Shown: positions 39,967-59,719 of the stretch, in pieces
Position numbering within the stretch: position 1 is the stretch's first letter
How the letters are laid out: every line of letters begins with the position of its first letter
Assembly: GCA_013115135.1 (NCBI GenBank)
Contig: JABANP010000037.1
Location: 1-64,000 of the forward strand
Source: Perkinsus olseni
Taxonomy: Eukaryota > Perkinsozoa > Perkinsida > Perkinsidae
DNA length: 64,000 bases
Reading direction: 5' to 3'
Notes under the pieces: model-generated
What the model saw: the letters and a program-made list of their open reading frames with translations, nothing else
Told to the model about the DNA's origin: nothing
Database searches by the model: none
Program-made: the position numbers and the translations under genes

Positions 39967-40731
39967 CCCTCCGGAGCCCAACTCTCCGTACATTTACTCG
40001 CATGTTTTCATGTAAATGCAGATGCTGGACATGTCAAGACGATTTTCACTGTGGGTTTAGTTCAATAGTGCAGTGGCTGCTGAGCAGAAGGCGATTTGAA
40101 GGCATCGATCCAGCGAGATTGGCAACCATTCCGAAAGACAGGAATGCCGGGTCTTCGGTTTGAACCCGGGACCTCTCGCATGAAAGCGTTGATTTTTTCG
40201 CGCGACATTGTGATCGAATGCCACAACAGTACAACTCACTGAGGCACTTGCAGAGAGTGAAGTGAAGCTAGTAATGTGGAAACGCTCGACTCGCGCCATT
40301 CAGTTCTTCCAATGCAAATACTCCTGAAGTGGTGTCCTGTGCTTAGAGTGATGTAGGTTGCAGCGGGCTGATCCGTCTCGCTCAGCGCGGTGAAATTGCG
40401 ATCAGGATTTTACATATGCTGTGGATGGATACTCCTCTTTCTGCGTATGCATGCTGTCGGCTAACCTAGTGATGGATAGAGTCCTAGGGAGTATTTATCG
40501 GGCATGTTCGTCAGGCTTGCTGGCACCAGCCCCTTGCGGAAAGGGCGAATCGTAGCGATGTGTTCGGGTCTTACTCAAGTAGTCCATGACTGGAGACTCT
40601 GGCTTAGAGTGAATCTGGTCTAGTCCGGATTCCCAGGTATTGTTCGAAATCCGTCAGCCGACCTGACTTCAGTCGAGTAAAAAGCTGAGTTAACTGCTCC
40701 CATCACTAGTAGTTGCCTTGCCTCCATCATC
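39967..40731. other. Spacer between the PARP and ferric-reductase-like genes
   Basis: There is no gene that I can support. It contains a tRNA-like fragment (see 40148-40190). The part just upstream of 40732 probably holds the promoter and 5'-UTR of the ferric-reductase-like gene. Confidence 0.45.
40148..40190 (-). other. tRNA-Ala-like fragment (B-box region)
   Basis: On the minus strand the sequence CATGCGAGAGGTCCCGGG continues into TTCAAACC. It closely resembles the 3' half of eukaryotic tRNA-Ala (anticodon-stem end, variable loop, T arm). The T stem is interrupted by four extra bases before CCCGG, and no 5' half is visible. It is a tRNA relic or a short tRNA-derived element. Confidence 0.4.
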
Positions 40732-42543
40732 ATGCTGTATGAGATAATGGCGAAGTGCCCATTCGGGTTCACTTCGGGGACTCCGCCCCCCTGGGTCCAC
40801 ATTCCAGGGAGTACCCCGGCCCCCGGAGATCCGAGCGCTCCAACGAGTGCGCCCGGCGGCGCTGAGTCGGACAAGGAGAAACTGATGCAGCAGTGCGTTG
40901 TTCCCCCTGAGAATCCTGACTGGGCGGGATGGGCCCAGTGGGCTTTCCCCTTCTTCTGTGGTCTCGCCATTGTGATCATGATCGTGGCAGTGAGGCTTAG
41001 ACGATACATGCCCAACTGGCTGCAGCGGCCCTGTAATCGTGTATTTGCCAGCCGCGCGAACGCCGTCAGTTTTGCGGTGCTCATATTATCGCTCGCTGTT
41101 GCTGCGATTATCCAGCTTGCCACTTACAACGTTCCGGAAGGAACGAAGCGGGCCAGTGTTATCTTCGCTCGGATATCAACTTGGTCCATCGCCGGTTGTT
41201 TCTTCCTGTCTATCCGCCCGGTCGCCCGTCTTTTCAAGGTCGGGTTCGAGCGACTCACTATTCTCCATGCGTTGCTCGGCATCAACGCCCTCGTCTTCGG
41301 TATAATGCATCTCATCATGATCGCCCCTCGAGTGTCCGTCCAGTGTGCCCTCATTCTGGGTGGTAGCGAAGCCGTAGTTGCCGGTATACTCTTCTTGATA
41401 ACCTTCGTATGCGCCTTCATCTACAAGTTCATCCCGCATGGTTATCGAGTGTTCCGCTGGTCTCATTGGTTGGTCTACATCGCCACCCTCGTGCTCTTCT
41501 TCCACACTCTCCAGCATGAGCTTGTACAGTCGCAGTTCTACGACTCTGCTGCACCCTACGTCACTTCGGGTGTCCTCTTTGTAGTGTGGATTGCCAGCAT
41601 CATCGAGAGGGTTATTGAACTCATCGAGACCATTGTGCAGGCCGTCTCCACCAAGTCCAAGAAGCATTTCGACGAGCACCCCGACGCGTCCGGCAGTGCC
41701 TTTTGCTCTAAGGTGGAGTCTATCACGCCTTTGACTGATGGTGACGACAAGGCGGAAGCGGCAGCCTGCGAGATCGTGCTCAGGTCGCATGTGAAGCCGA
41801 AGCCGGGACAGTGGGTTTCGGTGACCTTCCCTGGGAAGGACTGTGTGGCTCACGCGTTCTCCCCTCTCCGAACCCGAAGGAAGAGAATACGATGAAGTTG
41901 CTTGTGTCTTGTGATGGCTACATGACTAAAAAGTTCGTGGCCGCTGATTTTGAGAGGTTCATCAACTCTCGTGTGTATGTTCAAGGACCGTACGGTGCTT
42001 CGGACCTGCCGAAGCAAATAGCAGGACCCTGGCGACTACACCGTAATGATCGCTGGTGGCACGGGCATCACGCCAATTGCCTCGGTTATTGCTTCACTAC
42101 CGGCTGACCAGAAGGAGAAGGTGTCTCTTCTTTGGGCCTTCAGGAGTTCTGGAGAGTTTGTGTCTGTCCATCAGCTACTAGCTGGGGTTGGGCACCGTAA
42201 CCTCATGTACTCTGGCAAGGATGAGGTCATGCGTCGAGCCACTGCGGATTTGGAAGCGTGCGAGTGTCCTGCTCATTACGGTCATATGACTGTTGGCGGA
42301 GAAGCTTTGAAAGATACTCGTCCCAGTCATTTCGCTCATCACGGAAACAAGGAGATCGCAGACTTTGTCGACAAGGCCATTGAAAAGGCGGATGAGAGCA
42401 ACGCGAAAAGGATTAACTTCTATATGTGTGGACCTTCATGCATGATCAATCTGACGGTCGAGGCCGTTCGAGCTGCTGAAATACCCGAGGGCCTCGAACT
42501 TGGCGTTGTCAAACGCGAGTCCTTCGGCATGATGCCATGGTAA
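40732..42543 (+). CDS. Ferric reductase/NADPH-oxidase-like flavocytochrome with two frameshifts
   Basis: The first frame (40732 to about 41865) encodes a Pro-rich start and then membrane helices. Paired haem-ligand histidines are spaced as in ferric reductases and NOX enzymes: ILHALLGINALVFGIMH (13 between) and HWLVYIATLVLFFH (12 between). The FAD region begins KPGQWVSVTFPGK and HAFS. Coding continues in a second frame (PNPKEENTMKLLVSCDG, VYVQGPYGAS) to about 42025. It then returns to the first frame with GDYTVMIAGGTGITP (NADPH site) and FYMCGPSCMI, ending at 42543. Electrons would pass from NADPH through FAD and two haems across the membrane, probably to ferric iron or oxygen. Both shifts lie in C-runs and cancel. 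They may be assembly errors, mutations or recoding. The second half has no introns. Confidence 0.82.
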
Positions 42544-46239: not shown

Positions 46240-46500
46240 TTAACACTGGGTGACCGAGACGTATAGACGTCCCGCCTGAGCTCTCACTAGCGTCGTGTAA
46301 GAGCGGTTCCACCTAAGCTCCTCTATTAAATTGAAGAGGGCCCATCTCTAGCTACCGCGCCTAAAGGCTACGGCTAGCGAAGAGACCGAGGCACACGGCA
46401 TTGGAAAATACCGTAGCAAAGGCAAAAGGCACTCAGCGATGCACCAGTCGTGGTCGGACATACGAAGTACGTACTCCTCCCACTCTGGTTAGCATCTACT
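46240..46500 (-). repeat. Conserved post-riboswitch module, copy 1
   Basis: On the minus strand about 260 nt follow the TPP aptamer and are shared with three other copies. The module includes GCCTTTTGCCTTTGCTACGG, GGTAGCTAGAG, a CCTCTTCAATT hairpin region and GGAGCTTAGGTG. It ends near CCCAGTGTTAA. It may carry splice sites or the mRNA 3' end used by the switch. Confidence 0.85.
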
Positions 46501-46603
46501 AGTTCGCTCCCTTCGCAGGCATTACCCTGGTCAGGTTCCGACGGTGATCTCTCAGCCGAGAGCCCTTCCCCAGATGGGGTCGGTCTCAGCACCCGTGCGA
46601 ACT
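46501..46603 (-). promoter_or_regulatory. TPP riboswitch aptamer, 3' of SLC19-like copy 1
   Basis: Read on the minus strand, the sequence fits the thiamin pyrophosphate aptamer consensus. P1 is AGTTCGC paired with GCGAACT. The left side carries ACGGGTGC. P3 forms from CTGAGA and TCTCGG, with an inner CCCC/GGGG stem. The conserved CTGAGAGAT follows, then GAACCTGA, a CAGG/CCTG P5 stem around GTAATG, and GCGAAGGGA. It begins 155 nt after the stop of the frameshifted SLC19 gene. TPP binding in a 3'-UTR is known in plants to steer splicing and 3'-end formation. A matching role here is inference. Confidence 0.95.
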
Positions 46604-46757
46604 TAGTGTCCAATGAGGATGAATAGAAAGGATTATAGAATCATACAAGTCTCATAGATATCGAGACGAATCCAAAATAGCAATGCAAACGAAGTACCGA
46701 AGACAGAAGAAAAAAGGAAGATGAACATCAGCGATTGTGAGAAGTAGCATCTCACTC

Positions 46758-48224
46758 TCACTTGGCACTCTCAGAAACATCAGTGGGAGTGACACGTCTC
46801 TTGGACCAGAAATACAATGCAACGGCTAAGACCATAAAGACTACCTGGAACGACAGTTGGAATACCCACAGTATCTTATAGACAATACGAAGATCGATCT
46901 GGAACCAAGTGAACATGAAGAGGGAGAGAATCGTAGACAAGATGTACGCAGTTAAATTGTTGAACATGACAATAATGGCATAGCAACCCGAGTTGACATT
47001 ATCTTCCCCTTTAATATGCTTGTTAACAACACGGCCGGTCTCTGCGCTGACGAAGGCGTTGATGAAGTGGTAACCCAGGTAGTAGAGGATAAAACCGATA
47101 CACATCGGTATGATACGATCATACCAAATCATTAACGTCAGAGCTAGGATACACCAGATGCCCATGGCACCAACCGTCACATGCTGATGGTAATATGCGA
47201 CCTTCAGGATACGTGGGCACTGCTACAGACAACGCACTGATGGAAGCAATGAGCTGAGCTATTGCAAAAACGGTACCGTTGTAGTTCTTCTCGGTACCCT
47301 CCTCTACCATCATCATATCGTACAGCGAGGATTCGTAACCATCAATAAGACCGTACGCGCAGTTGCCGAAGATCCACCAGAAGAGAATAAGAATGTAAAC
47401 CTTGTCCTCGTACGCCCACTTCATAGTCTTCCACACCTCCTTAGGCCTCGGAGCTTTGTCACGCTTGACACCGGTAAGAAACAGAGCAATAAAAGCAGCC
47501 ACAATGACCGATGCCGCTGAGACCCACATGAGAGAAGTATAGCTCATGTGACAAGCATCGACCATGACATCGCCTACTATACCAGACAGCATATGAGAGA
47601 ACACATAAGAGGCCAAATTCATCGATGTTAATTTTTGGTAGTTTTCCTTGGGCACGACGTGGAAGAGGTAGCCGTAAAAGATTTCTTCAGCCGCAGTACC
47701 GAAAGCGTACGTACACTGCATGATTTGCATGTCGAGTAGAGAACTACCGAACAACAACAGGAACCTTGTTGCTAAACGCCCCAACGCTCCCAGGATGAGC
47801 TCGAGCTTATAGCCAACGAACTCGGATAGGCAGCCGCCGACCAGTAGAAAGGGGATACACGCGTAGGTGGACCAAGGGTAGATTTGAGAATTGATCTGAT
47901 CATCAGTGAAGCCCTTGGTCTCTCTGAGGTAGGTCGTGAGATGGGGTTCGGATGGTATGAATGCCAGAAAAAAAGTGAAATACAGCATATAGTAGCCTCG
48001 TACCAGAAAGGCTTATAACCATCTGGGCCGGTAGGGACCTTCCAATCACCATGCCAAAGCCGTGACCACACAGACTTCACCTTCTTCCCCTCTTCGGTAT
48101 GCCCCGCTGAGGATCCGGCACCATCTTCCACGTCAACCGTCTTGCTTATGATAGGCTGCTCGAGGCTTGCGCAGCTGTCGGTAGGGGCTGAAGAGATGCT
48201 GCTTGAAGCACTACGTGATGTCAT
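46758..48224 (-). pseudogene. SLC19-type thiamine/folate carrier, copy 1, two frameshifts
   Basis: This aligns throughout with the intact copies at 50122-51588 and 53204-54673, but single-base differences break the frame twice. Near 47980 the copy reads GTGAAATACAGC where the intact copy has GTGAAAGTACAGC. Near 47215 it reads GATACGTGGGC where intact copies have GATACGGGGC or GATACGAGGC. The start (MTSRSASSSISS, ATG 48224) and stop (46758) are kept. Family motifs remain, including SEPHLTTYLRETKGFTDDQ, IYPWSTYACIPFL and NAFVSAETGRVV. It is a recent pseudogene, or an intact gene with two sequence errors. Its riboswitch is unaltered. Confidence 0.8.
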
Positions 48225-49603
48225 GATCTCAAAAGTAACCAATAAAACAGACTGGGAAATGATAAGCCTTCTTACCATTCGAACTTCACCATCTCTGATC
48301 CGCGGTCACCATCTGAAGTTCAGATTCTGAATACGCTAAGTTTATCACAAGAGCCGCAAATCCTGTCCCCATGATTCAACACACAGCAGGGACAACTGCC
48401 AGTGTTGGTGCCTAGTTTACGACAAGCAGCTTGAGACTGTAGAGTCAGCCTCTGCGCTACAGCCTAAAATACTGAGGTGTCGGTTCACTGACTAAGCCAT
48501 ACCCAGGTGCTTCCAGTCTACGAGTTCTCAGAGAGTTTGCCGCGAGCGGTGTGTCCAGACGTATAGCGATACAACCACACGAGATCCGACGGGCAAAAGG
48601 ATGTCGACCAAGCTGCTACAAAAAGACAAGTACAAAGAGGAAGTCTACTATCTTTTCAGCTTGCGCGATACAACTTCATTCGACTACCGAGATACACGCC
48701 TCACATTTACAGGTCTCGGGTCCCCATCTCTCGCGCTCAGCTCGGAGGAGGTTGCACACAAGAGGTAGCTGGGTTTCGAGACGCCCGATAGAGAAGAACA
48801 TCTATAGCTTCACGCGCCCCAAGACCTATCCTTGATCCACAACCGGATTGTATAGATGCGAGACTCCCCTGAGCCACGAACAAAGAATAGGCGTCACGAC
48901 GCCGCGATGGTGGTGATCTGGGATTGTTATTTCCTGATCAACACCAGCTCAGACGAGCATTACTTTGATGGCGAGGGGCGCTCATATTATGTGTTAGTAT
49001 GATAGAATGGCTTCTGTCACGGAGGAGTCTGACTATCTCAATATTCGCTCAGCTGCCTCGAGTCTACTACGAACCTACAGCAGGATTCGACCACTGCCAA
49101 GCAACTTCCCGTAAAAACCCCTGCCTATTAAAGCGAAGGACGGATGCCGACGAGGCAGAATACCAGCCGTTGATTATTTCGGTCCCTCCTAAAAGCGAAT
49201 CTCCGCCCGCTATTTCCACGAGAGAAGAGGTACTCATGAAAACCAGAGTGCGAAAACTTTGCGCTCAATCACGCCTCTCTTCAAGCATTGGCACCCGAGC
49301 TGAACACGCTACCTATTGCTATTGAACTTTATAACATCTCTAGGAGCACCATCAACGGCAGTAGACACCAGGAAGGCTTTTCGCCATTGGCTAATCCATC
49401 CACTAATGTGGAAAGAACTCGATGAAGCCTTCGACGGCCAATGTTACCGAGCTCCAGAACTGGGACCGGGCTCCCATTACAAGCATACCAATAAGGCAAA
49501 CTAGCCGAAGCACAACCCCAGAAATCCGCTGCATAGAAAGATTCCCCCCTCTATGCACTCATTCTCTTTCCGAATCACACACCTCCCCAGCTAATCTCCC
49601 CTA
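48225..49603. other. Spacer upstream of carrier copy 1 in the SLC19 tandem array
   Basis: This is non-coding by my reading. Parts are repeated in the next spacer, for example GAAGCCTTCGA and AAGCATACCAATAAGGC near 49424-49500 and 52530-52620. That shows the duplicated unit includes intergenic DNA. Confidence 0.6.
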
Positions 49604-49862
49604 ATTAACACTGGGTGGCTGAGACGTCTACACGTCCCGCCTGAGGTCTCACCGGCGCCGAAGAAGGGCGGTTCACCTAAGCTCCTCTACTGAATTGAAG
49701 AGGGCCCACCTCTAGCTACCGCGCCCAAAGGCTACGGCTAACGTAGAGACCGAGGCACACGGCATTGGAAAATACCGTAGCAAAGGCAAAAGGCACTCAG
49801 ATGCTCCAGTCGTGGTCGGACATACAAAATACGCAGTCCTCCCATTCTGGTTGGCATCTGCT
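49604..49862 (-). repeat. Conserved post-riboswitch module, copy 2
   Basis: Same 260-nt module as at 46240-46500, directly after aptamer copy 2 on the minus strand, with few differences. Confidence 0.85.
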
Positions 49863-49964
49863 AGTTCGCTCCCTTCGCAGGCATTACCCTGGTCAGGTTC
49901 CGACGGTGATCTCTCAGCCGAGAATCCTCCCCAAATGGGGTCGGTCTCAGCACCCGTGCGAACT
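49863..49964 (-). promoter_or_regulatory. TPP riboswitch aptamer, 3' of SLC19-like copy 2
   Basis: Same fold and core as copy 1 (CTGAGAGAT, GAACCTGA, GTAATGCC, GCGAAGGGA). Differences are confined to the P3 tip (CCCCATTTGGGG and one base fewer). It starts 158 nt after the stop codon of the intact carrier at 50122. Confidence 0.95.
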
Positions 49965-50121
49965 TAGTGTCCAATGAAGATGAATAGAAAGGATTATAGA
50001 ATTATACAATTCATTTAGATATCGAGATCGACAACAAGATATAAAAGCGAATAAATAAGTACCGAAGACAGAAGATATGGGGAGAGGAACATCAGCGATC
50101 TTGAGGATTAGCATCTCACTC

Positions 50122-51588
50122 TCAATCGCTACTCTTAACAGCATCGGTGACGTTGCCACGTCTCTTGGACCAGAAGTGAAGTAGTATGGCCAGTATCATA
50201 AAGACTGCCTGGAACGACAGTTGGAATACCCACAGTATCTTATAGACAATACGAAGATCGATCTGGAACCACGTGAACATGAAGAGGGAGAGAATCGTAG
50301 ACAATATGTACGCAGTTAAGTTATTAAACATGACAATAATGGCATAGCAACCCGAGTTGACATTATCTTCCCCTTTAATATGCTTGTTAACAACACGGCC
50401 GGTCTCTGCGCTGACGAAGGCGTTGATGAAGTGATAACCCAGGTAGTAAAGGATAAAGCCGATACACATCGGTATGATACGATCATACCAAATCATCAGG
50501 GTCAGGGCTAGGATACACCAGATGCCCATGGCACCAACCGTCACATGCTGATGGTAATATGCTACCTTCAGGATACGGGGCACTGCTACGGATAACGCGC
50601 TGATCGATGCAATGAGCTGAGCTATTGCATAGACAGTACCGTTGTAGTTCTTCTCGGTACCCTCCTCGACCATCATCATATCGTACAACGAGGATTCGTA
50701 ACCATCAATAAGACCGTAAGCGCAGTTTCCGAAGATCCACCAGAAGAGAATAAGAATGTAAACCTTATCTTCGTACGCCCACTTCATAGTCTTCCACACC
50801 TCCTTAGGCCTTGGAGCTTTATCACGCTTGACACCGGTAAGAAACAGAGCAATAATAGCAGCAACGATGACCGATGCCGCTGAGACCCACATGAGAGAAG
50901 TATAGCTCATGTGACAAGCATCGACCATGACATCGCCAACTATACCAGACAGCATATGAGAGAACACATGAGAGGCCAAATTCATCGATGTTAATTTTTG
51001 ATAGTTTTCCTTGGGCACGACGTGGAAGAGGTAGCCGTAGAAGATTTCTTCGGCCGCAGTGCCGAAGGAGTACGTACACTGCATGATTTGCATGTCGAGT
51101 AGAGAACTACCGAACAACAACAGGAACCTTGTTGCTAAACGCCCCAACGCTCCCAGGATGAGCGCCAACTTGTAGCCGACGAATTCAGATAGGCAGCCGC
51201 CAACCAGTAGAAAGGGGATACACGCGTAGGTGGACCAAGGGTAGATTTGAGAGTTGATCTGATCATCAGTGAAGCCCTTGGTCTCTCTGAGGTAGGTCGT
51301 TAGATGAGGTTCGGAAGGTATGAAAGCCAGGAAAGCAGTGAAAGTACAGCATATAGTTGCCTCGTACCAAAAAGGCTTATATCCGTCAGGGCCGGTAGGG
51401 ACCTCTAAATCACCATGCCAAAGACGTGACCACACAGACTTCATCTTCTTCCCCTCCTCAGTATGCCCCGTTGAAAAACCGGCACCATCTTCCACGTCTA
51501 ATGTCTTGCTTATGATAGGCTGCTCGAGGCTACCTAAGCTGGCAGAATGGGCTGAAGAGATGCTGCTTGAAGCACCACGTGATCTCAT
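50122..51588 (-). CDS. SLC19-type thiamine/folate carrier, copy 2 (intact)
   Basis: This single-exon gene of 488 residues belongs to the reduced folate/thiamine carrier family (SLC19), in the major facilitator fold. After a Ser-rich cytosolic start (about 75 residues) the family signature appears: FIPSEPHLTTYLRETKGFT, IYPWSTYACIPFLLVGG, ATRFLLLFGSSLLDMQIMQ and NYQKLTSMNLASHVFSHML. Later helices include WWIFGNCAYGLIDGYESSL, GYHFINAFVSAETGRVV and TAYILSTILSLFMFTWF. About 12 membrane segments are expected at the plasma membrane. Animal members import thiamine or folate. The TPP riboswitch in the 3' flank points to thiamin or its precursors as substrate. The tail is basic (SKRRGNVTDAVKSSD). Confidence 0.9.
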   Translation of the reverse strand: MRSRGASSSISSAHSASLGSLEQPIISKTLDVEDGAGFSTGHTEEGKKMKSVWSRLWHGDLEVPTGPDGYKPFWYEATICCTFTAFLAFIPSEPHLTTYLRETKGFTDDQINSQIYPWSTYACIPFLLVGGCLSEFVGYKLALILGALGRLATRFLLLFGSSLLDMQIMQCTYSFGTAAEEIFYGYLFHVVPKENYQKLTSMNLASHVFSHMLSGIVGDVMVDACHMSYTSLMWVSAASVIVAAIIALFLTGVKRDKAPRPKEVWKTMKWAYEDKVYILILFWWIFGNCAYGLIDGYESSLYDMMMVEEGTEKNYNGTVYAIAQLIASISALSVAVPRILKVAYYHQHVTVGAMGIWCILALTLMIWYDRIIPMCIGFILYYLGYHFINAFVSAETGRVVNKHIKGEDNVNSGCYAIIVMFNNLTAYILSTILSLFMFTWFQIDLRIVYKILWVFQLSFQAVFMILAILLHFWSKRRGNVTDAVKSSD

Positions 51589-52722
51589 GATTAAAAGTAA
51601 GCAATAAAACCGACTGGGGAAAAATAATCCTTTCTACTACTCGTACTCCACCCTCATCACAGCGACCCGCATCCACGATCCGAATACGCTAAGGTATTCA
51701 CACGAGCCACAAATCCTGTCCCCGCGGCTCAACACGCAGGGGGACAATTTCCTGTGTTGTTGACTAGTTAATGACAAGCAGCTTGAGAATCTCGAATTAG
51801 CCTTCACGCTACGGCCTAGAACACAGACGTATTGGTACACTGACAAAGCCACGCTGGGGTGCTGCCAGTCGTAGCATGGAGAGTTTCCAGGAAGCTTTAT
51901 CGCGAGCATTGAGTCCCAAACGTGTAGCAACACAGCTGCACGACGTCCGATGAATATTAGGATGACGACCGAGTGGCGTGGAGACACAAACAGGTGAAGG
52001 AGATGCAAAGTGGGAAGTTCATTCTGATTCCAGTTCCATCGGGCCACGAGCAGAGAATAGGCGTCACGGACCTCGGCGAGGGTGATGACCTGGGCTTGTA
52101 TCGTCTGATGAACGCCAGCTTGGATGAGCAACACTGGCTTATGTCATGGAACAGTCTAACGATCGCAATCTTCGCTCGTCACACTCACGAAATTGCAGCA
52201 GGATTCGACCTCTTTCAAGGGACTTTCCGTCATAACTGCTGTATATTTGAACGGATAAGGACAAAGCAGAGAACCAGCCCTTCACAAGAAGTTCAGCACC
52301 TCCGAAAAGCGAAGGCCCGCCCGATCTTTCAACGAGAGAAGAGCTTCTCGCCTGAGACACAGAGTATCTTGGCGCTCAGTCACGTGTCTCTTTTGGCGTT
52401 GCCACCCGAGCTAAACCACGCTACCTATTGCTGTTGAACTTCATAACACCGGTGGCATCAACGGCACTAGGCGCCGAACAGACTTCCATTGAACAATAGG
52501 AAGAACTGAACCGACAAACCATCCACTAACGAGAAGGAAATCGGTGAAGCCTTCGAGGACCAATGTTACCGCAATCCAGGGCTAGGATGGGGCTGCCACT
52601 AAAAGCATACCAATAAGGCTAGCTGAAGCACGACCCCATTCATCCATTGCATGAAGAGATTCTCGCCTCTATGCACTCGTTCCCTATCCGAATCGCGCAC
52701 CTCCCCTGCTAATCTCCCCTAA
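51589..52722. other. Spacer in the SLC19 tandem array
   Basis: Promoter and 5'-UTR of copy 2 are presumably here. I see no separate gene. Segments are similar to the spacer at 48225-49603. Confidence 0.6.
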
Positions 52723-52980
52723 TTAACACTGGGTGGCTGAGCCGCTCACATGCCTCGACCGAGTTCTCACTAGCGTCGTATAAGCGCGGTTCACCTAAGC
52801 TCCTCTTCTTAATTGAAGAGGGCCCACCTCTAGCTACCGCGCCTAAAGGCTACGGCTAACGTAGAGACCGAGGCACACGGCATTGGAAAATACCGTAGCA
52901 AAGGCAAAAGGCACTCAGATGCTCCAGTCGTGGTCGGACATACAAAATGCGTAGTCCTCCCATTCTGGTTGGCATCTGCT
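52723..52980 (-). repeat. Conserved post-riboswitch module, copy 3
   Basis: Third copy of the 260-nt module following the aptamer. It differs most at its distal end (GCGCTTATACGACGC in place of CCCTTCTTCGGCGCC). Confidence 0.85.
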
Positions 52981-53083
52981 AGTTCGCTCCCTTCGCAGGC
53001 ATTACCCTGGTCAGGTTCCGACGGTGATCTCTCAGCCGAGAGCCCTTCCCCCAATGGGGTCGGTCTCAGCACCCGTGCGAACT
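52981..53083 (-). promoter_or_regulatory. TPP riboswitch aptamer, 3' of SLC19-like copy 3
   Basis: Core identical to the other copies, with P3 tip CCCCATTGGGGG. It begins 121 nt after the carrier stop at 53204. A possible polyadenylation signal (AATAAA on the minus strand, 53197-53202) lies between the stop codon and the aptamer, so transcripts might end before or after the switch. Confidence 0.95.
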
Positions 53084-53203
53084 TAGTGTCCAATGAGGAT
53101 AAATAGAAAGATCTACGCGGCAGCAATGTTAACGAAGTAGTACAGAAGACGAAGATTAGCGGAAAAAATATCGTCGCCTATCACGACAAGTAGCATTTTA
53201 TTC

Positions 53204-54673
53204 TCAATCGCTACTCTTAACAACGTCAGCGGTGGCACGTCTCTTAGACCAGAAATACAATGCAACGGCTAAGACCATGAATACCGCCTGGAACGACAGT
53301 TGGAATACCCACAGTATCTTATAAACATTACGAAGATCGATCTGGAACCAAGTGAACATGAAGAGGGAGAGAATCGTAGACAAGATGTACGCAGTCAAGT
53401 TATTAAACATGACAATAATGGCATAGCAACCCGAGTTGACATTATCTTCCCCTTTAATATGCTTGTTAACAACACGGCCGGTCTCGGCGCTGACGAAGGC
53501 GTTGATGAAGTGATAACCCAGGTAGTAGAGGATAAAGCCGATACACATCGGTATGATACGATCATACCAAATCATCAAAGTCAGGGCTAGGATACACCAG
53601 ATGCCCATGGCACCAACCGTCACATGCTGATGGTAATACGCGACCTTCAGGATACGAGGCACTGCTACAGACAAGGCACTGATGGATGCAACGAGCTGAG
53701 CCAGCGCAAAAACGGTACCGTTGTAGTTCTTCTCGGTACCCTCCTCTACCATCATCATATCGTACAGCGAGGATTCGTAACCATCGATAAGACCGTACGC
53801 GCAGTTGCCGAATATCCACCAGAAGAGAATAAGAACGTAAACCTTGTCCTCGTACGCCCACTTCATAGTTCTCCACACTTCCTTAGGCCTCGGGGCCCGA
53901 TCACGCTTGACACTTGTGAGGAAGAGAGCAATAATAGCAGCAACGGTGACCGAAGCAGCCGAGACCCACTGAAGAGAGGTGTAGCTCATGTGACCAGCAT
54001 TGAGCATGATATCACCAACTATACCAGACAGCATATGAGAGAGTACGAAGGCGGCCAAGTTCATCGACGTCAATTTCTGATAGTCCTTGTTGGCCACGAC
54101 GTGGAACAAGTAGCCATAGAAGATCTTCTCGGCCGCCGTTCCGAAGGAGTAAGTAACCTCTAGGATCTGCATGTGAAGTACAGTGGTACCGAACAACAAC
54201 AGGAACCTTGTTGCTAAGCGACCCATCGCTCCTAGGATTAGTGCCAACTTGTAGCCAACGAACTCGGACAGGAAGCCACCAATCAACAGGAAGGGTATGC
54301 AGGCGTAGGTGGACCAAGGGTAGATCTCAGAGTTGATCTGATCATCCGTAAAGCCCTTGGTCTCTCTGAGGTAGGTCGTGAGATGGGGTTCGGAGGGCTT
54401 GAAGGCCAGGAAAAAAGTGAAAGCACAGCATATACTAGCCTCGTACCAAAAAGGCTTATATCCATCTGGGCCGGTAGGGACCTTCCAATCACCATGCCGA
54501 AGACGTGACCACACAGTTCTCTTCGCCCTCTTCTCTTCGAGATGTTTCTCAGAGAAGCTAGCACCATCTTCCACATCTAATGTCTTGCCGATGATAGGCT
54601 GTTCGAGACTATCAACACTGGCGGCATGGACTGGGGACATGCTGCTAGAAGCGCGACGAGACCTCATGTTCAA
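53204..54673 (-). CDS. SLC19-type thiamine/folate carrier, copy 3 (intact)
   Basis: This intact 489-residue gene is closely similar to copy 2. N-terminal variation is limited to the cytosolic region (MSPVHAASVDSLEQPI). The membrane part keeps FKPSEPHLTTYLRETKGFT, IYPWSTYACIPFLLIGG, LLLFGTTVLHMQILEVTYSF and NAFVSAETGRVVNKHIKGE. The version LFGTTVLHMQ is even closer to the animal SLC19 consensus. There is no intron. Expected location is the plasma membrane and expected cargo thiamin, by riboswitch association. ATG 54673 is chosen because the next in-frame ATG would cut the conserved start MRSRRASSS. Confidence 0.9.
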   Translation of the reverse strand: MNMRSRRASSSMSPVHAASVDSLEQPIIGKTLDVEDGASFSEKHLEEKRAKRTVWSRLRHGDWKVPTGPDGYKPFWYEASICCAFTFFLAFKPSEPHLTTYLRETKGFTDDQINSEIYPWSTYACIPFLLIGGFLSEFVGYKLALILGAMGRLATRFLLLFGTTVLHMQILEVTYSFGTAAEKIFYGYLFHVVANKDYQKLTSMNLAAFVLSHMLSGIVGDIMLNAGHMSYTSLQWVSAASVTVAAIIALFLTSVKRDRAPRPKEVWRTMKWAYEDKVYVLILFWWIFGNCAYGLIDGYESSLYDMMMVEEGTEKNYNGTVFALAQLVASISALSVAVPRILKVAYYHQHVTVGAMGIWCILALTLMIWYDRIIPMCIGFILYYLGYHFINAFVSAETGRVVNKHIKGEDNVNSGCYAIIVMFNNLTAYILSTILSLFMFTWFQIDLRNVYKILWVFQLSFQAVFMVLAVALYFWSKRRATADVVKSSD

Positions 54674-55772
54674 ATGGGACCAAGCAATTCGACTGTGAGT
54701 GAACTCTCACGCTATGGTGTGGTTACGCGTCACAATTTCTGTCCCTCGGGAGCCCAGAGGTAAAACACGCAACAAAGACAACTAGCTCGACTAGTGGCCT
54801 CTTACCGGCGTACGGAGACTCACAGTTATCTACAAATCAGACTCGCTCCGAACGTGAGGCCTGCCCGAGGCGCCCTAGGGTGTTCCAAAAAAACATTTTC
54901 CAGAGAATCCAGTGGATTCAATCCACCCCAAGAGGTGTTATCACCAACTACAGAGAAGTAACGGTAAGGAGACTCACAACCCTGCCATGCACAATGGCGT
55001 CAGGCCACAGTCGAGTGTCGACTCTCTAACTCAAGACTGGCCAGGCTTTGGTTTCACGTGCGTGCTCTTGTGCATGCGTGCTATTAAGCGCGGGCGTCAC
55101 GCTGAACATGTCCAGTGACGACTCTCCACCGGAGAGGCCCGCGGGTCGACGGACTCGAGCCTCCCATCCTCGAAGCTTTGGGAAGGACGGGCCTCGAAAT
55201 CTACGGGGTAGGAGTTAACGTACAAACCGGAGTCGACTAATAGGAACCCTGTAGTGTTTTGGGCTTCCTAGACCTGCGGAACTCAAGAACCTCGCGCGCA
55301 TGCAGGAGAAGAGCGGGGGCCCCTACCGAAACATCCGATGACTCAACCGCATTCAATGTTGTCAAAACGAAGTTACCAATCATCCTAGACCAGCCTGCTG
55401 TCACTCCAGTAGAGATTGTTCCACAGAGCGTTGGAACTTCACGCTCAACTGTGGTTCCCCTGGACCGTCGGCAGCCTAGTCCAATATTCTCCTCGTTCAC
55501 CGTTAACCTTCATTGCGTGACACGCCTAGGAAGCCATCAACTCCACTGTCACGGACAGCATAAACACGCTAGCTCCCTAAAGGGCAAGGGGCCCAAAGCA
55601 CTGCTTGCTTTCAACCCTCCCACGTCCAATCTATCCCTCCCCAAGACTATCTTCCGTTTCGACCACACCACTAATAACTCCACCGATGAATCCGAGAGTA
55701 TCCGACGGACGCTCCTCACAGCCCGATGCTCAGCAACAGCTGATCAGACCCTCTCTAATAACCCCTCCTTAA
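54674..55772. other. Spacer in the SLC19 tandem array
   Basis: I see no supported gene. It presumably contains the promoter of copy 3. It is less similar to the other spacers than they are to each other. Confidence 0.5.
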
Positions 55773-56035
55773 TTGACACTGGGTGGCTGTGACGTCTACA
55801 CGTCCCGCCTGAGTTCTCACCGGCGCCGAAGAAGGGCGGTTCACCTAAGCTCCTCTACTGAATCGAAGAGGGTCCACCTCTACTGTAGCTACCGCGCCTA
55901 AAGGCTACGGCTAACATAGAGACCGAGGCACACGGCATTGGAAAATACCGCAGCAAAGGCAAAAGGCACTCAGATGCTCCAGTCGTGGTCGGGCATACGA
56001 AATACGCAGTCCTCCCACTCTGGTTGGCATCTACT
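55773..56035 (-). repeat. Conserved post-riboswitch module, copy 4
   Basis: Fourth copy of the module. It has a small insertion (CTACAGTAGAGG in place of CTAGAGG) but otherwise matches the rest. Confidence 0.85.
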
Positions 56036-56137
56036 AGTTCGCTCCCTTCGCAGGCATTACCCTGGTCAGGTTCCGACGGTGATCTCTCAGCCGAGAGCCC
56101 TCCCCCAATGGGGTCGGTCTCAGCACCCGTGCGAACT
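56036..56137 (-). promoter_or_regulatory. TPP riboswitch aptamer, 3' of SLC19-like copy 4
   Basis: Same aptamer with P1 AGTTCGC/GCGAACT and all TPP-contact motifs. It starts 173 nt after the stop at 56310. The sequence between stop and aptamer differs from the other units, while the aptamer itself is conserved, which argues for selection or conversion on the switch. Confidence 0.95.
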
Positions 56138-56309
56138 TAACTTCCTGTTGCTGTCGAATACACAGAATTATGCACCGAAAACGGTGAGACAAGGAATCAT
56201 ACACCGCGAGGGGTGATGATGGAAAAGTACACAGAGAATGCGCGAATGAAAAAGACGCACACTACCTCGACGGCAGACCTCGTCGAAAACGACGGAAAAG
56301 ATCGCGACC

Positions 56310-57767
56310 TCATGTGGTGCTCTCAACAACATTAGAAACAGAGTTTCTCTTGAACCAGAAATATAGCAGTACAGCCAAGATCATGAAAGCTACCTGGAAC
56401 GACAGCTGCAATACCCACAGTATCTTATAGACAATACGAAGATCGATCTGGAACCAAGTGAACATGAAGAGGGAGAGAATCGTAGACAAGATGTACGCAG
56501 TTAAGTTGTTGAACATGACAATAATGGCATAGCAACCCGAGTTGACATTATCTTCCCCTTTAATATGCTTGTTAACAACACGGCCGGTCTCGGCGCTGAC
56601 GAAGGCGTTGATGAAGTGATAACCCAGGTAGTAGAGGATAAAGCCGATACACATCGGTATGATACGATCATACCAAATCATCAAAGTCAGGGCTAGGATA
56701 CACCAGATGCCCATCACCCCCACGGCCAGGTGCTGGTGATAATATGTGACTTTCAATATCCGAGGCACAGCCACGGACAAGGAGCTAGCGGAAGCAACAA
56801 GTTGAGCAATAGCAATGACGGTCCCGTTGTAGTTCTTCTCAGTGCCCTTGTCAACCATCATCATATCATAAAGAGAGAACTCGTAAAGCTCGACAAGAAC
56901 AAAAACACAGTTACCGAGGACCCACCAGAAGAAGATGAGTGCGTAGACCTTGTCCTCATACACCCACTTCATAGTTCTCCACACCTCCTTAGGCCTGGGT
57001 GCCTTATCACGCTTGACACTGGTAAGAAAGAGAGCTACTAAAACAGCTAGCAAAACTGAGCCGGCTGAGACCCATTGAAGAGAAGTATAGCTCACGTGAC
57101 AGGCATCGAGCAAAACATCGCCAACTACACCGGACAACGTATGAGCGATGGCATACGTAGCTAGGTTCATAGAAGTCAATTTCTGATAATTCTCGTTGGA
57201 AACGACGTGAAAAAGATACCCATAGAAGATCTTCTCGGCAGCTGTCCCGAATGCATAAGTAATCTCCATGAACTTCATCTCGGTCACGGTAGTACCAAAC
57301 AAAATAAGCGCCCTCATAGTTAATCGACCCAACGCCCCCAAGATGAGCGACAACTTGTAGCCGACGAACTCGGACAGGCAACCACTAATCAACAGGAAGG
57401 GTATGCAAGCGTAGGTGTTCCAAGGATAGATCTCTGAGTTGATCTCTTTATCAGTAAAGCCCTTGATCTCTCTGAGGTAGGTAGTTATGTGTGGATCAGC
57501 CGGCTTGAAGGCCATGAGGAAGGTATAAGCACAGCAGAGCGAAGCTTCGTACCAGAATGGCTTGTATCCATCTGGACCGGTAGGGACCTTAAACCCACCG
57601 ATCCAGGTGTCAAACCACATGGCCCACTTTTTCTCGTCAAGTTGCTTCACGGGCGACCCAACGCCATAGTCTGCATATGAAGTTTCGCTTACATCAGGCT
57701 GTTTGAGGCTCTGAGTAGTAGTAATATTGGTAGAAGACATGCCGCTGGACGTACTTGAAGATCTCAA
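56310..57767 (-). CDS. SLC19-type thiamine/folate carrier, copy 4 (intact, divergent N-half)
   Basis: This 485-residue single-exon gene begins MRSSSTSSGMSS. The first two-thirds differ noticeably from copies 1-3 (FKPADPHITTYLREIKGFT, MRALILFGTTVTEMKFMEI, ALIFFWWVLGNCVFVLVELY). From about codon 350 onward (56712 down to 56400) it is nearly identical to them at the DNA level (GYHFINAFVSAETGRVV, FNNLTAYILSTILSLFMF). The switch from divergent to near-identical sequence is abrupt at 56712-56716. Same fold and probable role as its neighbours. N-half divergence may alter substrate preference, for example thiamin versus a pyrimidine precursor or folate. Confidence 0.9.
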   Translation of the reverse strand: MRSSSTSSGMSSTNITTTQSLKQPDVSETSYADYGVGSPVKQLDEKKWAMWFDTWIGGFKVPTGPDGYKPFWYEASLCCAYTFLMAFKPADPHITTYLREIKGFTDKEINSEIYPWNTYACIPFLLISGCLSEFVGYKLSLILGALGRLTMRALILFGTTVTEMKFMEITYAFGTAAEKIFYGYLFHVVSNENYQKLTSMNLATYAIAHTLSGVVGDVLLDACHVSYTSLQWVSAGSVLLAVLVALFLTSVKRDKAPRPKEVWRTMKWVYEDKVYALIFFWWVLGNCVFVLVELYEFSLYDMMMVDKGTEKNYNGTVIAIAQLVASASSLSVAVPRILKVTYYHQHLAVGVMGIWCILALTLMIWYDRIIPMCIGFILYYLGYHFINAFVSAETGRVVNKHIKGEDNVNSGCYAIIVMFNNLTAYILSTILSLFMFTWFQIDLRIVYKILWVLQLSFQVAFMILAVLLYFWFKRNSVSNVVESTT

Positions 57768-58391
57768 AGCTACTAGGAATAGATTGAAACCGAACAGGAA
57801 AGAAGAACCTCACATCGTGAGTAGGGTACTGTTCGGGAACATAACCAAACTTCAAAAATTTTTCAAATGGATAGCCATAGCACATCATTTCACAGCAGGT
57901 GAGATACGGGTGGAAACTTTCCACCGGAAAGCCTAGCGTCCCATCTCACAATTCCTGTCCCTCGGCAGCTGGACGACAGAGAGCACAACACCACGAACTC
58001 ACCTTACCCTCTTCACAGGACAAGAACCCCGAGTTCTCTACAAACCTGGTCTCAGTTCTACACTGCAGAGCCTGCGTTCCCCTTCGACAGTCGTAGTGCA
58101 CTCGCTAACAAGACCCATACTGCAGATTTTCGATGCCGATTCCGCATCGAAAAAAAAATCCATTCCGCATTGCGGAGCACTCGGGAGCACGTGCGCATGC
58201 GTGCAAAGGGCGGCGTCACGGCCCCCTTCTTTCGAACGGGAGTCCGAGTGATCGAACGATCGTAATCTGGACAGTGGACATCCATACAGTCCGGCTGAAT
58301 CTTCGCCCTGGTGACTCTCTCTGCTGCCTCAGGTTTGGTTGACAACTTTCCTGACAGTTGTTTTCGTCACAGCTGCCGTCTGTTCAGGGAA
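57768..58391. other. Divergent promoter region between carrier copy 4 and the inverted homologue
   Basis: Both flanking SLC19 genes point away from this spacer. It holds a small palindrome (GGTGGAAA-C-TTTCCACC, about 57910) and an A-run near 58148. No TPP aptamer is present here. Confidence 0.55.
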
Positions 58392-59719
58392 ATGACCGAT
58401 ACCAACGGGGCAATGAGCGACTCTGATTCAAACAGTAAAGTCTCTCCGGTGGTGGAGGACGACGACGATCGTGATATTCTGCTGAAGAAACGTTTTTGGT
58501 GGGAAGCCCTGAAGTGCTGCTCCTTCACCTTCTTACTCACCTTCAAGCCATCCGAGCCCCACATCTCAACCTACCTCCGTGAAGTCAAGTCTTTTACCGA
58601 CGTTGAAATCTATACGCAGATTTACCCTTGGTGGACCTATTCAACCCTGGTGCTAGTATTCGTCTCAGCCTTCCTGGCCGAGTTCGTCGGCTACAAGCTC
58701 TCCCTCGTACTCGGCGCCTGTGGGCGAGTGGCGACTCGGTTTTTGTTGCTCTTCGGAACCAGGCTGTGGCACATGCAGGTGATGCAGGTGTGCTACGCCT
58801 TCGGTACGACGGCCGAGATCGTATTTTACGCCTACATTTTTCACATAGTTACGCGAGATGACTATCAGAAACTAACATCCATGGCGTTAGCAGCGCATGT
58901 CATTTCAAATGCTCTCTCCGGATTCCTCGGTGATATCCTGCTCAACGTCTTCCACCAGAGTTACACAACCCTCATGTGGTGGTCGGCCGTATTCGTTTGT
59001 TGTGCTGCTCTGGTAACTCTCACATTCACTTCCGTGAGGAGACCTAAAAGTCCGACCCCATCTCAAGTATGGACCACCAATCAAGCTGGCGTATCGTAAC
59101 GTGACTTTCTTGCTCATCATTCTATGGTGGATATTCGCTAACAGCGCCTACGGAATCGTTTACGGCTATGAGTCCTCCTTGTACGATATCATCATGACAA
59201 GAGACAAGCTGGACAACTACAATGGCACAGTGTTTGCAATGGGCCAAATTTTAGCGACTCTAGCATCACTCTCTGTTGCTGTGCCGATAGTCCTGAGATT
59301 CACTTCTAATAACCAACACTTGACTGTTGGTTTCGTGGGGTGGCTGTGCACAGCAGCCCTCGGACTGATGGCTTGGTGGTCGGACTTGGCCCCTATGTGC
59401 ACTGGTTTTGTATTCTACTACGGTTCCTATCATTTCGTTAATGCCTTCGTGTCTGCAGAGACCGGACGAGTCGTTAACGGCAACACGAAGGAATCGGGCC
59501 ACACGGGGGATCCCGGCCGAGACTGCTACGCTATGGTCGTACTCTGTAACAACGTCGTAGCCCTGTGCCTTTCAGTGCTGCTCCAGTTGATCTTCTTTTC
59601 CTGGTACGCGTTGGACCTAACTCCTAGTCTATAGGATCTTATGGACCTATCAGGCCGTTTTCACAGCAATTTTTTCTCTTTGCGCTGTTGGCTTGTACAG
59701 CTGGCATCGTCTGAGATAA
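58392..59719 (+). pseudogene. Inverted SLC19-type carrier without riboswitch, two frameshifts
   Basis: A fifth family member lies on the opposite strand. ATG 58392 starts MTDTNGAMSDSDSNSK. Motifs are FKPSEPHISTYLREVKSFT, IYPWWTYSTLVLVFVSA, ATRFLLLFGTRLWHMQVMQ, GYESSLYDIIM and NAFVSAETGRVVNGN. The frame breaks near 59082 (ACCACCAATCAAG, one A too many) and near 59628 (ACTCCTAGTC). After that the family ending VYRILWTYQAVFTAIFSL continues to a TAA at 59717-59719. Codons are clearly under past selection. Either it is a young pseudogene or the sequence has errors. No TPP aptamer is found up- or downstream, so it would lie outside thiamin control. Confidence 0.75.

What the first reader, a model, noticed from the sequence alone, without database searches (positions are those of the whole stretch)
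46501..56137. Four TPP riboswitches placed 3' of tandem SLC19-type thiamine/folate carriers
The sequence shows four aptamers (46501-46603, 49863-49964, 52981-53083, 56036-56137), each with the full TPP core: CTGAGAGAT, GAACCTGA, a CAGG/CCTG stem around GTAATG, GCGAAGGGA, and a 7-bp P1. Each starts 121-173 nt after a carrier stop codon on the same strand. A 3' position fits better than a leader position: the last switch (copy 1) is followed by an unrelated AGMO-like gene, and the first carrier (copy 4) has no switch upstream. Plants place a TPP switch in the THIC 3'-UTR, and several algae have TPP switches on other genes. I know of no case on SLC19 carriers or in a 3'-UTR array in this kind of protist. 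Inference: TPP feeds back on thiamin import.
Basis: partly seen in the sequence, partly recalled or inferred. Interest (0 to 1): 0.96.

Follow-up and report, generated by a model that had tools for sequence, protein, structure and literature searches.

The report
Vitamin B1 switches behind clam-parasite transporters
In a genome that matches the clam parasite Perkinsus olseni, four neighbouring genes of the animal vitamin-B1/folate importer family are each followed, just after their stop codon, by an RNA element that matches the known vitamin B1 (TPP) sensor, which would likely let the cell cut back import when it has enough of the vitamin.

Summary
Rfam RF00059 finds exactly four TPP aptamers in the window, all on the minus strand (60.9-62.0 bits, cut-off 54.3), each starting 117-169 nt after the stop codon of a tandem SLC19-type (PF01770) carrier. 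The organism is, by protein identity, Perkinsus olseni or a near relative. Three more aptamers were found in the genome, all in the 5' leader of a sodium:solute symporter. Two other SLC19-type carriers have none.

New here: the aptamer is only the first third of a ~370-nt element, 94% identical per column over four copies, while c1 is unalignable with the others just outside it. Folding pairs the element's 3' end with the aptamer core, as an anti-aptamer would. This is suggestive only: gene conversion acts in the array and the energy tests are mixed.

Best reading: a 3'-end TPP feedback switch on thiamine import. Transcription through the aptamer, TPP binding and regulation are untested; a conserved diatom 3'-UTR TPP aptamer failed to switch (PMC9544697).

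The parts
56310..57740 (-). Carrier c1 (SLC19-type, PF01770), 476 aa, first of the array
   Evidence: PF01770 E 1e-48; 98% to P. olseni FOL46_003602
56026..56140 (-). TPP aptamer 1, 169 nt after the c1 stop
   Evidence: RF00059 62.0 bits
55768..56140 (-). Conserved element 1 (aptamer + downstream part)
55803..55828 (-). Predicted anti-aptamer arm 1 (alignment columns 317-342)
   Evidence: prediction; letters
53204..54667 (-). Carrier c2 (PF01770), 487 aa
   Evidence: E 6e-53
52971..53086 (-). TPP aptamer 2, 117 nt after the c2 stop
   Evidence: 60.9 bits
52718..53086 (-). Conserved element 2
52753..52778 (-). Predicted anti-aptamer arm 2
   Evidence: prediction; letters
50122..51588 (-). Carrier c3 (PF01770), 488 aa
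   Evidence: E 2.3e-49; 94% to P. olseni FOZ63_031904
49853..49967 (-). TPP aptamer 3, 154 nt after the c3 stop
   Evidence: 61.0 bits
49600..49967 (-). Conserved element 3
49635..49660 (-). Predicted anti-aptamer arm 3
   Evidence: prediction; letters
46758..48224 (-). Carrier c4 (PF01770-type by similarity to c3), in different frames in this assembly
   Evidence: three pieces, 80-91% identical to c3
46491..46606 (-). TPP aptamer 4, 151 nt after the c4 stop
   Evidence: 61.9 bits
46235..46606 (-). Conserved element 4
46270..46295 (-). Predicted anti-aptamer arm 4
   Evidence: prediction; letters
57947..57963 (-). Promoter-like element, 206 nt before the c1 ATG
   Evidence: pattern was drawn from these four sites
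54731..54747 (-). Same element, 63 nt before the c2 ATG
51708..51724 (-). Same element (1 mismatch), 119 nt before the c3 ATG
48355..48371 (-). Same element (1 mismatch), 130 nt before the c4 ATG
58389..59634 (+). Head-to-head PF01770 carrier without an aptamer, in two frames

Best explanation
Each of four tandem SLC19-family carrier genes is followed, 117-169 nt after its stop codon, by a TPP-riboswitch aptamer that heads a ~370-nt conserved element, and this element is likely part of the carrier's own 3' end, where TPP would fold the aptamer and lower output of the carrier. Shown: aptamers, carriers, spacing, strand, and conservation among the copies. Predicted: without TPP the aptamer core (alignment columns 46-68, with the CUGAGA motif) pairs with an arm about 250-300 nt downstream (columns 317-342); TPP binding would free that arm. 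Inferred: the freed arm changes splicing, 3'-end formation or stability of the carrier mRNA, as a freed 5' splice site does in plant THIC, and so closes a feedback loop on thiamine import. Which of these outputs is used is not known.
For: Four full-length RF00059 matches over the cut-off. The 7 found in the genome stand only at two kinds of transporter gene: 4 at the SLC19 array, 3 at a symporter. Spacing to the carrier before is short (117-169 nt); the carrier after starts 1358-1628 nt on or is absent. A promoter-like element lies before each of the four carriers, c1 (no aptamer upstream) included, and nowhere else in the window (4 found, 0.13 expected, but the pattern was drawn from these sites). 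Aptamer plus ~265 nt is conserved in all four (94% mean column identity), although c1 is unalignable with the others just outside and its fourfold sites agree with c2/c3 at only 27-62% up to alignment column 360 of the protein. The ~265 nt fold better than the mean of 100 shuffles (z -1.5, -4.1, -3.0, -4.3). The anti-aptamer helix pairs in 76 of 76 cells; 4 of its 19 pairs vary and all keep pairing by A/G opposite U; slid controls pair in 33-51%; null P about 0.025 (post hoc). Coupling of aptamer and downstream part is reached by 4, 0, 4 and 9 of 120 shuffles. Thi4, TMP synthase and pieces of thiamin pyrophosphokinase are found, but neither ThiC nor NMT1/THI5, so thiamine or its pyrimidine must likely be imported. 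Glu stands at the SLC19 specificity position in 9 of 9 aligned proteins.
Against: No transcript data. 3' UTRs of tandem genes in the dinoflagellate A. carterae are 42-143 nt (PMC2488372), so a 3' UTR that holds the element would be long. Gene conversion in the array (fourfold sites 23 of 23 identical between c1 and c2 at protein alignment columns 360-419) can by itself keep copies alike, so identity is not proof of selection; c2 and c3 are also alike (mostly 77-85% per 50 columns) for some 250 columns after the element. The best short duplex between aptamer and downstream part is matched by 14, 14, 6 and 15 of 100 shuffles; a cruder whole-length duplex by 102, 17, 45 and 16 of 500, and, for c3, by 18 of 326 real window segments. 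The outer helix (columns 1-23 with 353-376) is unpaired in 4 of 76 cells. Only 1 of 127 pairs of the consensus fold shows a double change. The predicted cost of the ligand-binding fold is 8.8-16.9 kcal/mol, high for one TPP. A candidate splice site (GUGAGA) opens somewhat in only 3 of 4 copies and its GU hardly at all. A conserved 3'-UTR TPP aptamer of a diatom did not respond to thiamine. Acceptor-like sites before the carrier ATGs are no better than background.
Confidence: 0.6

Rival explanations
1. The aptamers are intact by sequence but do not regulate: they are kept by gene conversion within the array, or have another role, as concluded for the diatom THIC 3'-UTR aptamer.
For: PMC9544697 (passages and discussion part 1): a conserved 3'-UTR TPP aptamer gave no change in transcript level, splicing or polyadenylation, and no switching in a reporter. 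Gene conversion is visible in this array.
Against: Outside the P3 stem the aptamer core is invariant in all four copies, the 3 symporter aptamers are identical to each other from P1 to P1, and both sets sit at transporter genes. The diatom authors too infer selection on the sequence.
Confidence: 0.22
2. The aptamers are 5' leaders: each belongs to the next gene downstream, joined to it by an intron of more than 1 kb, as in fungal 5'-UTR introns.
For: TPP aptamers of this same genome at the symporter are in the 5' leader. P. marinus introns reach 1622 bp (PMC3101222). Splice-like GUGAGA, and AGGUGAAC (with an extra G in c4), lie near the 3' end of each element.
Against: The first carrier has no aptamer upstream and the last aptamer has no carrier downstream. 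Most P. marinus introns are under 100 bp. A promoter-like element lies 63-206 nt before each ATG, between aptamer and gene.
Confidence: 0.12
3. The element is a transcript of its own, for example a spliced-leader RNA that starts at the aptamer and reads a 39-aa ORF whose ATG lies 6 nt after P1.
For: The ATG stands 6 nt after the aptamer's last strand in all four copies, much as in the symporter gene (7-9 nt); the ORF has 39 aa in c1-c3.
Against: The ORF is cut to 20 aa in c4; codon differences are not coding-like (c1/c2: 2 synonymous, 5 not; c1/c3: 0 and 5; c2/c3: 2 and 0). Similarity to the symporter N terminus is weak (reached by 25 of 1000 shuffles for c2, 166 for c1). No copy of the spliced leader in the window.
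Confidence: 0.06

Closest known systems
Plant THIC 3'-UTR TPP riboswitch
   Same: Aptamer downstream of the stop codon; mutually exclusive pairing between aptamer and a distant site (here predicted; the plant model as told in PMC10226581, passages)
   Different: Carrier gene, not a biosynthesis gene; the predicted arm lies downstream of the aptamer, not upstream; tandem array of four; outcome unknown
Algal and diatom 3'-UTR TPP aptamers (Micromonas; P. tricornutum THIC and SSSP)
   Same: 3' position; transporter genes among the targets (PMC4260697, PMC9544697; passages)
   Different: Genes named in the passages read are THIC, THIM, SSUA/THI5-like, SSSF, SSSP, SSSQ, ATS1/FOLR and UNK1, not PF01770 carriers; the diatom survey left 9 of 41 aptamers without such a gene
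TPP aptamer of Perkinsus marinus reported by McRose et al. 2014 (PMC4260697)
   Same: Same genus
   Different: Its gene is in a supplement that I could not read; the main text counts eight genes, and the eight names I saw do not include SLC19, so it is probably another gene
Human SLC19A1-3 (folate and thiamine carriers)
   Same: PF01770; best PDB hits are SLC19A3 (c3) and SLC19A1 (c2); thiamine-type Glu at the specificity position
   Different: Human genes have no known TPP riboswitch (recalled); several thiamine-pocket residues differ
Fungal and oomycete transporter TPP riboswitches (urea, nucleoside, amino-acid, sugar, sodium symporter)
   Same: TPP switch on a transporter (PMC5882874, PMC11683625; passages)
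   Different: Mostly 5' UTR or introns there (the conclusions of PMC5882874 also mention 3' UTRs); other transporter families

Membership tests
TPP riboswitch aptamer (RF00059) | Covariance-model score over the curated cut-off | tested here: met
   4 of 4, 60.9-62.0 bits against 54.3
TPP riboswitch aptamer (RF00059) | Full P1-P5 core with the conserved binding motifs | tested here: met
   Model 1-105 of 105 aligned in 4 of 4; cmscan marks a few non-standard pairs, and the optional P3a is absent
TPP riboswitch aptamer (RF00059) | Binds TPP | not testable with these tools
   Needs in-line probing
TPP riboswitch (regulatory) | Ligand-dependent change of gene expression | not testable with these tools
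   No RNA data held
SLC19 / reduced folate carrier (PF01770) | Profile score over the curated cut-off | tested here: met
   166.6-180.5 bits against 27 in c1-c3; c4 was not scanned, only matched in pieces
SLC19 thiamine subtype | Glu, not Arg, at the position of SLC19A1 Arg133 | tested here: met
   Glu in 9 of 9 aligned proteins, c1-c3 among them (position); c4 not in that alignment
SLC19 thiamine subtype | Other pocket residues (SLC19A3 Glu32, Glu110, Tyr113, Asn297, Glu320) | tested here: inconclusive
   Tyr113 kept in c1-c3; Glu32 kept in c2, c3, Asp in c1; Glu110 is Glu in c1, c2 and Gln in c3; Asn297 and Glu320 not kept, but the alignment there is weak
Plant-THIC-type 3'-UTR switch | Aptamer in the transcribed 3' UTR | tested here: inconclusive
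   Geometry fits; transcript ends unknown
Plant-THIC-type 3'-UTR switch | Aptamer masks a 5' splice site when TPP is low | tested here: inconclusive
   GUGAGA invariant, its GUGA paired with the aptamer in the consensus fold; opens in 3 of 4 copies only, GU stays mostly paired

The most novel reading that the evidence does not exclude
A complete TPP switch with its own long-range expression platform, aptamer and anti-aptamer arm as the two ends of a ~370-nt element, has been placed behind animal-type vitamin B1 carriers in a spliced-leader alveolate and copied with the genes, so that every carrier of the array senses TPP through its own 3' end.
Probability: 0.27. Interest if true: 0.8.

Novelty: new variant of a known kind. 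Interest (0 to 1): 0.6.

Why it matters
TPP is described as the one riboswitch class known in eukaryotes (PMC10226581, passage). If this one works, it adds the animal-type thiamine carrier family to its targets, in a lineage with spliced-leader trans-splicing, where 3'-end control could be linked to trans-splicing of the next gene (inference). Four near-copies, together with 5'-leader aptamers at a symporter of the same genome, make a natural set for testing how a 3' aptamer acts and why the diatom one does not. My searches (an open-access library only, most hits seen as listings) found no paper that links a TPP riboswitch to SLC19 carriers.

Tried and rejected
Oomycete origin: dropped after the perkinsid spliced leader was found 146 times with at most one mismatch (60 forward, 86 reverse; 0 in the reversed control) and carrier and symporter proteins matched P. 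olseni. Other RNA families in the downstream part of element 3: none up to E 1. Other copies of the element: only the four in the genome; no exact match of a 46-base aptamer pattern in viral contigs or of a 34-base downstream pattern in prokaryote genomes, where none would be expected. Aptamers at thiamin pyrophosphokinase, TMP synthase, Thi4, the plus-strand and the C314 carriers: none in six loci of 3-4 kb at E up to 10. A coding role for the 39-aa ORF: not supported. Trans-splice acceptors as proof that leaders are short: not above background for c1-c4 (pyrimidine fraction 0.72, 0.50, 0.61, 0.61 against a mean of 0.62); the symporter copies reach 0.83, as 4% of random windows do. A specific splice-site mechanism: left open. 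A weak further match to the carrier on contig C15 (E 8e-4) was not followed. In some searches the c4 start was set 2 nt off; one search has it right, and no conclusion rests on it.
Full report
What is there. The window is part of a 61.5-Mb eukaryote genome. The spliced leader of dinoflagellates and perkinsids occurs in it 146 times with at most one mismatch, the reversed control 0 times; TCTT in its core is the form reported for Perkinsus marinus, TTTT that of dinoflagellates (PMC3101222, passages). Carrier c1 is 98% identical to a Perkinsus olseni protein, c3 94%, and the symporter 98%. So this is P. olseni or a very near relative.

The four aptamers are confirmed and all lie on the minus strand. 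c1, c2 and c3 are intact PF01770 proteins of 476-488 aa; c4 is matched in three pieces in different frames and the plus-strand neighbour in two. A sixth family member on contig C314 (43% identical) has no aptamer in the 3-kb locus searched. Three more aptamers lie on contigs C7, C454 and C202, directly before the start codon of three close copies of a sodium:solute symporter (PF00474 23.3 bits, cut-off 22.8, one copy scanned). Those aptamers are identical in the three copies from P1 to P1. They resemble the symporter switches reported from algae and diatoms.

Which gene owns the aptamers. The gap to the carrier before is 117-169 nt; the gap to the next start codon is 1358, 1382 and 1628 nt, and the fourth aptamer is followed by no carrier. 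The first carrier has no aptamer upstream. A 17-base element stands 63-206 nt before each of the four carriers and nowhere else in the window (the pattern was drawn from these sites), so each likely has its own promoter. All this favours the 3' side. Against it: 3' UTRs of tandem genes in A. carterae are 42-143 nt (PMC2488372, passages), P. marinus introns can reach 1622 bp, and my acceptor scan before the carrier starts gave nothing above background.

The larger element. Aligning the four 3' flanks shows identity between c1 and the others beginning within a few bases of the aptamer and ending about 265 nt after it. Between c1 and the others the sequence from stop codon to aptamer and the sequence after the element look unrelated, while the element is 94% identical per column over all four. 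Among c2-c4 some flanking likeness remains: about 28 nt before the aptamer, and, between c2 and c3, mostly 77-85% per 50 columns for some 250 columns after the element, and patches beyond. The downstream part has no Rfam match up to E 1 (element 3), no other copy in the genome, and is not coding-like where an ORF exists. It folds clearly better than shuffles in three of four copies (z -4.1, -3.0, -4.3; c1 -1.5).

The consensus fold of the whole element does not contain the complete ligand-binding fold. It pairs aptamer columns 46-68, with the CUGAGA motif, to columns 317-342, and the aptamer's first strand to the element's last bases. In the inner helix all 76 cells pair; the four pairs that vary all stay paired, which has a chance of about 0.025 under a simple null. 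That test is post hoc, since the fold was derived from the same four sequences, and only 1 of 127 pairs of the fold shows a double change. The outer helix has 4 unpaired cells of 76. Coupling energy is lower than in nearly all shuffles (4, 0, 4 and 9 of 120 reach it), but the best short duplex is not special (14, 14, 6, 15 of 100), and a whole-length duplex only mildly so (102, 17, 45, 16 of 500). I rate the anti-aptamer as plausible, not shown.

Conservation has a second possible cause. At protein alignment columns 360-419, c1 and c2 agree at 23 of 23 fourfold sites, against 35-62% in the six 60-column segments before it: gene conversion is at work. The element may be kept alike in the same way.

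Function. No ThiC and no NMT1/THI5 match was found, while Thi4, TMP synthase and pieces of thiamin pyrophosphokinase were (searches see single exons only), so the cell must likely import thiamine or its pyrimidine. The carriers have Glu at the position that separates thiamine (Glu) from folate (Arg) carriers (PMC9794768, passages), yet other pocket residues differ (PMC11447181, passages), and whole-sequence similarity favours neither. Thiamine import is the likely role, not a proven one.

Mechanism. In plant THIC the aptamer masks a 5' splice site when TPP is low (PMC10226581, passages). Here an invariant GUGAGA sits in the arm and its GUGA pairs with the aptamer in the TPP-free fold. With the aptamer pairs forced, the site opens somewhat in c1-c3 (mean unpaired 0.33-0.34 to 0.45, 0.65, 0.49) and closes in c4 (0.00); the GU itself stays mostly paired. 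So a THIC-like splice switch is one candidate among several, and 3'-end formation or stability are as likely.

Novelty. 3' TPP aptamers and transporter targets are both known. The pairing with SLC19-type carriers, in an array, was not found in the searches. The two papers each hold SLC19 once, in a reference-list entry; the three were seen as listings only. The diatom study (passages and discussion part 1 of 2) is the main warning against reading sequence as function.

Noticed in passing
L005, L006, L007 (G000 contigs C7, C454, C202): Three close copies of a region with a TPP aptamer in the 5' leader of a sodium:solute symporter, the start codon 7-9 nt after P1; a pyrimidine-rich acceptor-like AG lies before the aptamer. 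A public P. olseni protein model (FOZ63_003161, 848 aa) that matches the whole symporter carries an acyltransferase domain.
   Followed up: partly
46758-48224 (-) and 58389-59634 (+): Two carrier genes lie in more than one frame here; a P. olseni protein fragment like the plus-strand one (P0005) reads through without a break, so assembly errors are possible.
   Followed up: partly
about 56410-56700 and matching parts of c2-c4: Gene-conversion tract: c1 and c2 agree at 23 of 23 fourfold sites at protein alignment columns 360-419.
   Followed up: yes
51961-52437 (+) and 48969-49325 (+): Open frames on the opposite strand in two spacers share 37% over 100 aa; no Pfam match up to E 0.1, no copy found outside these two spacers in the genome.
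   Followed up: partly
55911-56030 and equivalents (-): A 39-aa ORF starts 6 nt after the aptamer in c1-c3 (20 aa in c4), a geometry like that of the symporter start.
   Followed up: yes
40681-41895 (+): Ferric-reductase-like ORF (PF01794, 22.9 bits, below the cut-off of 28).
   Followed up: no
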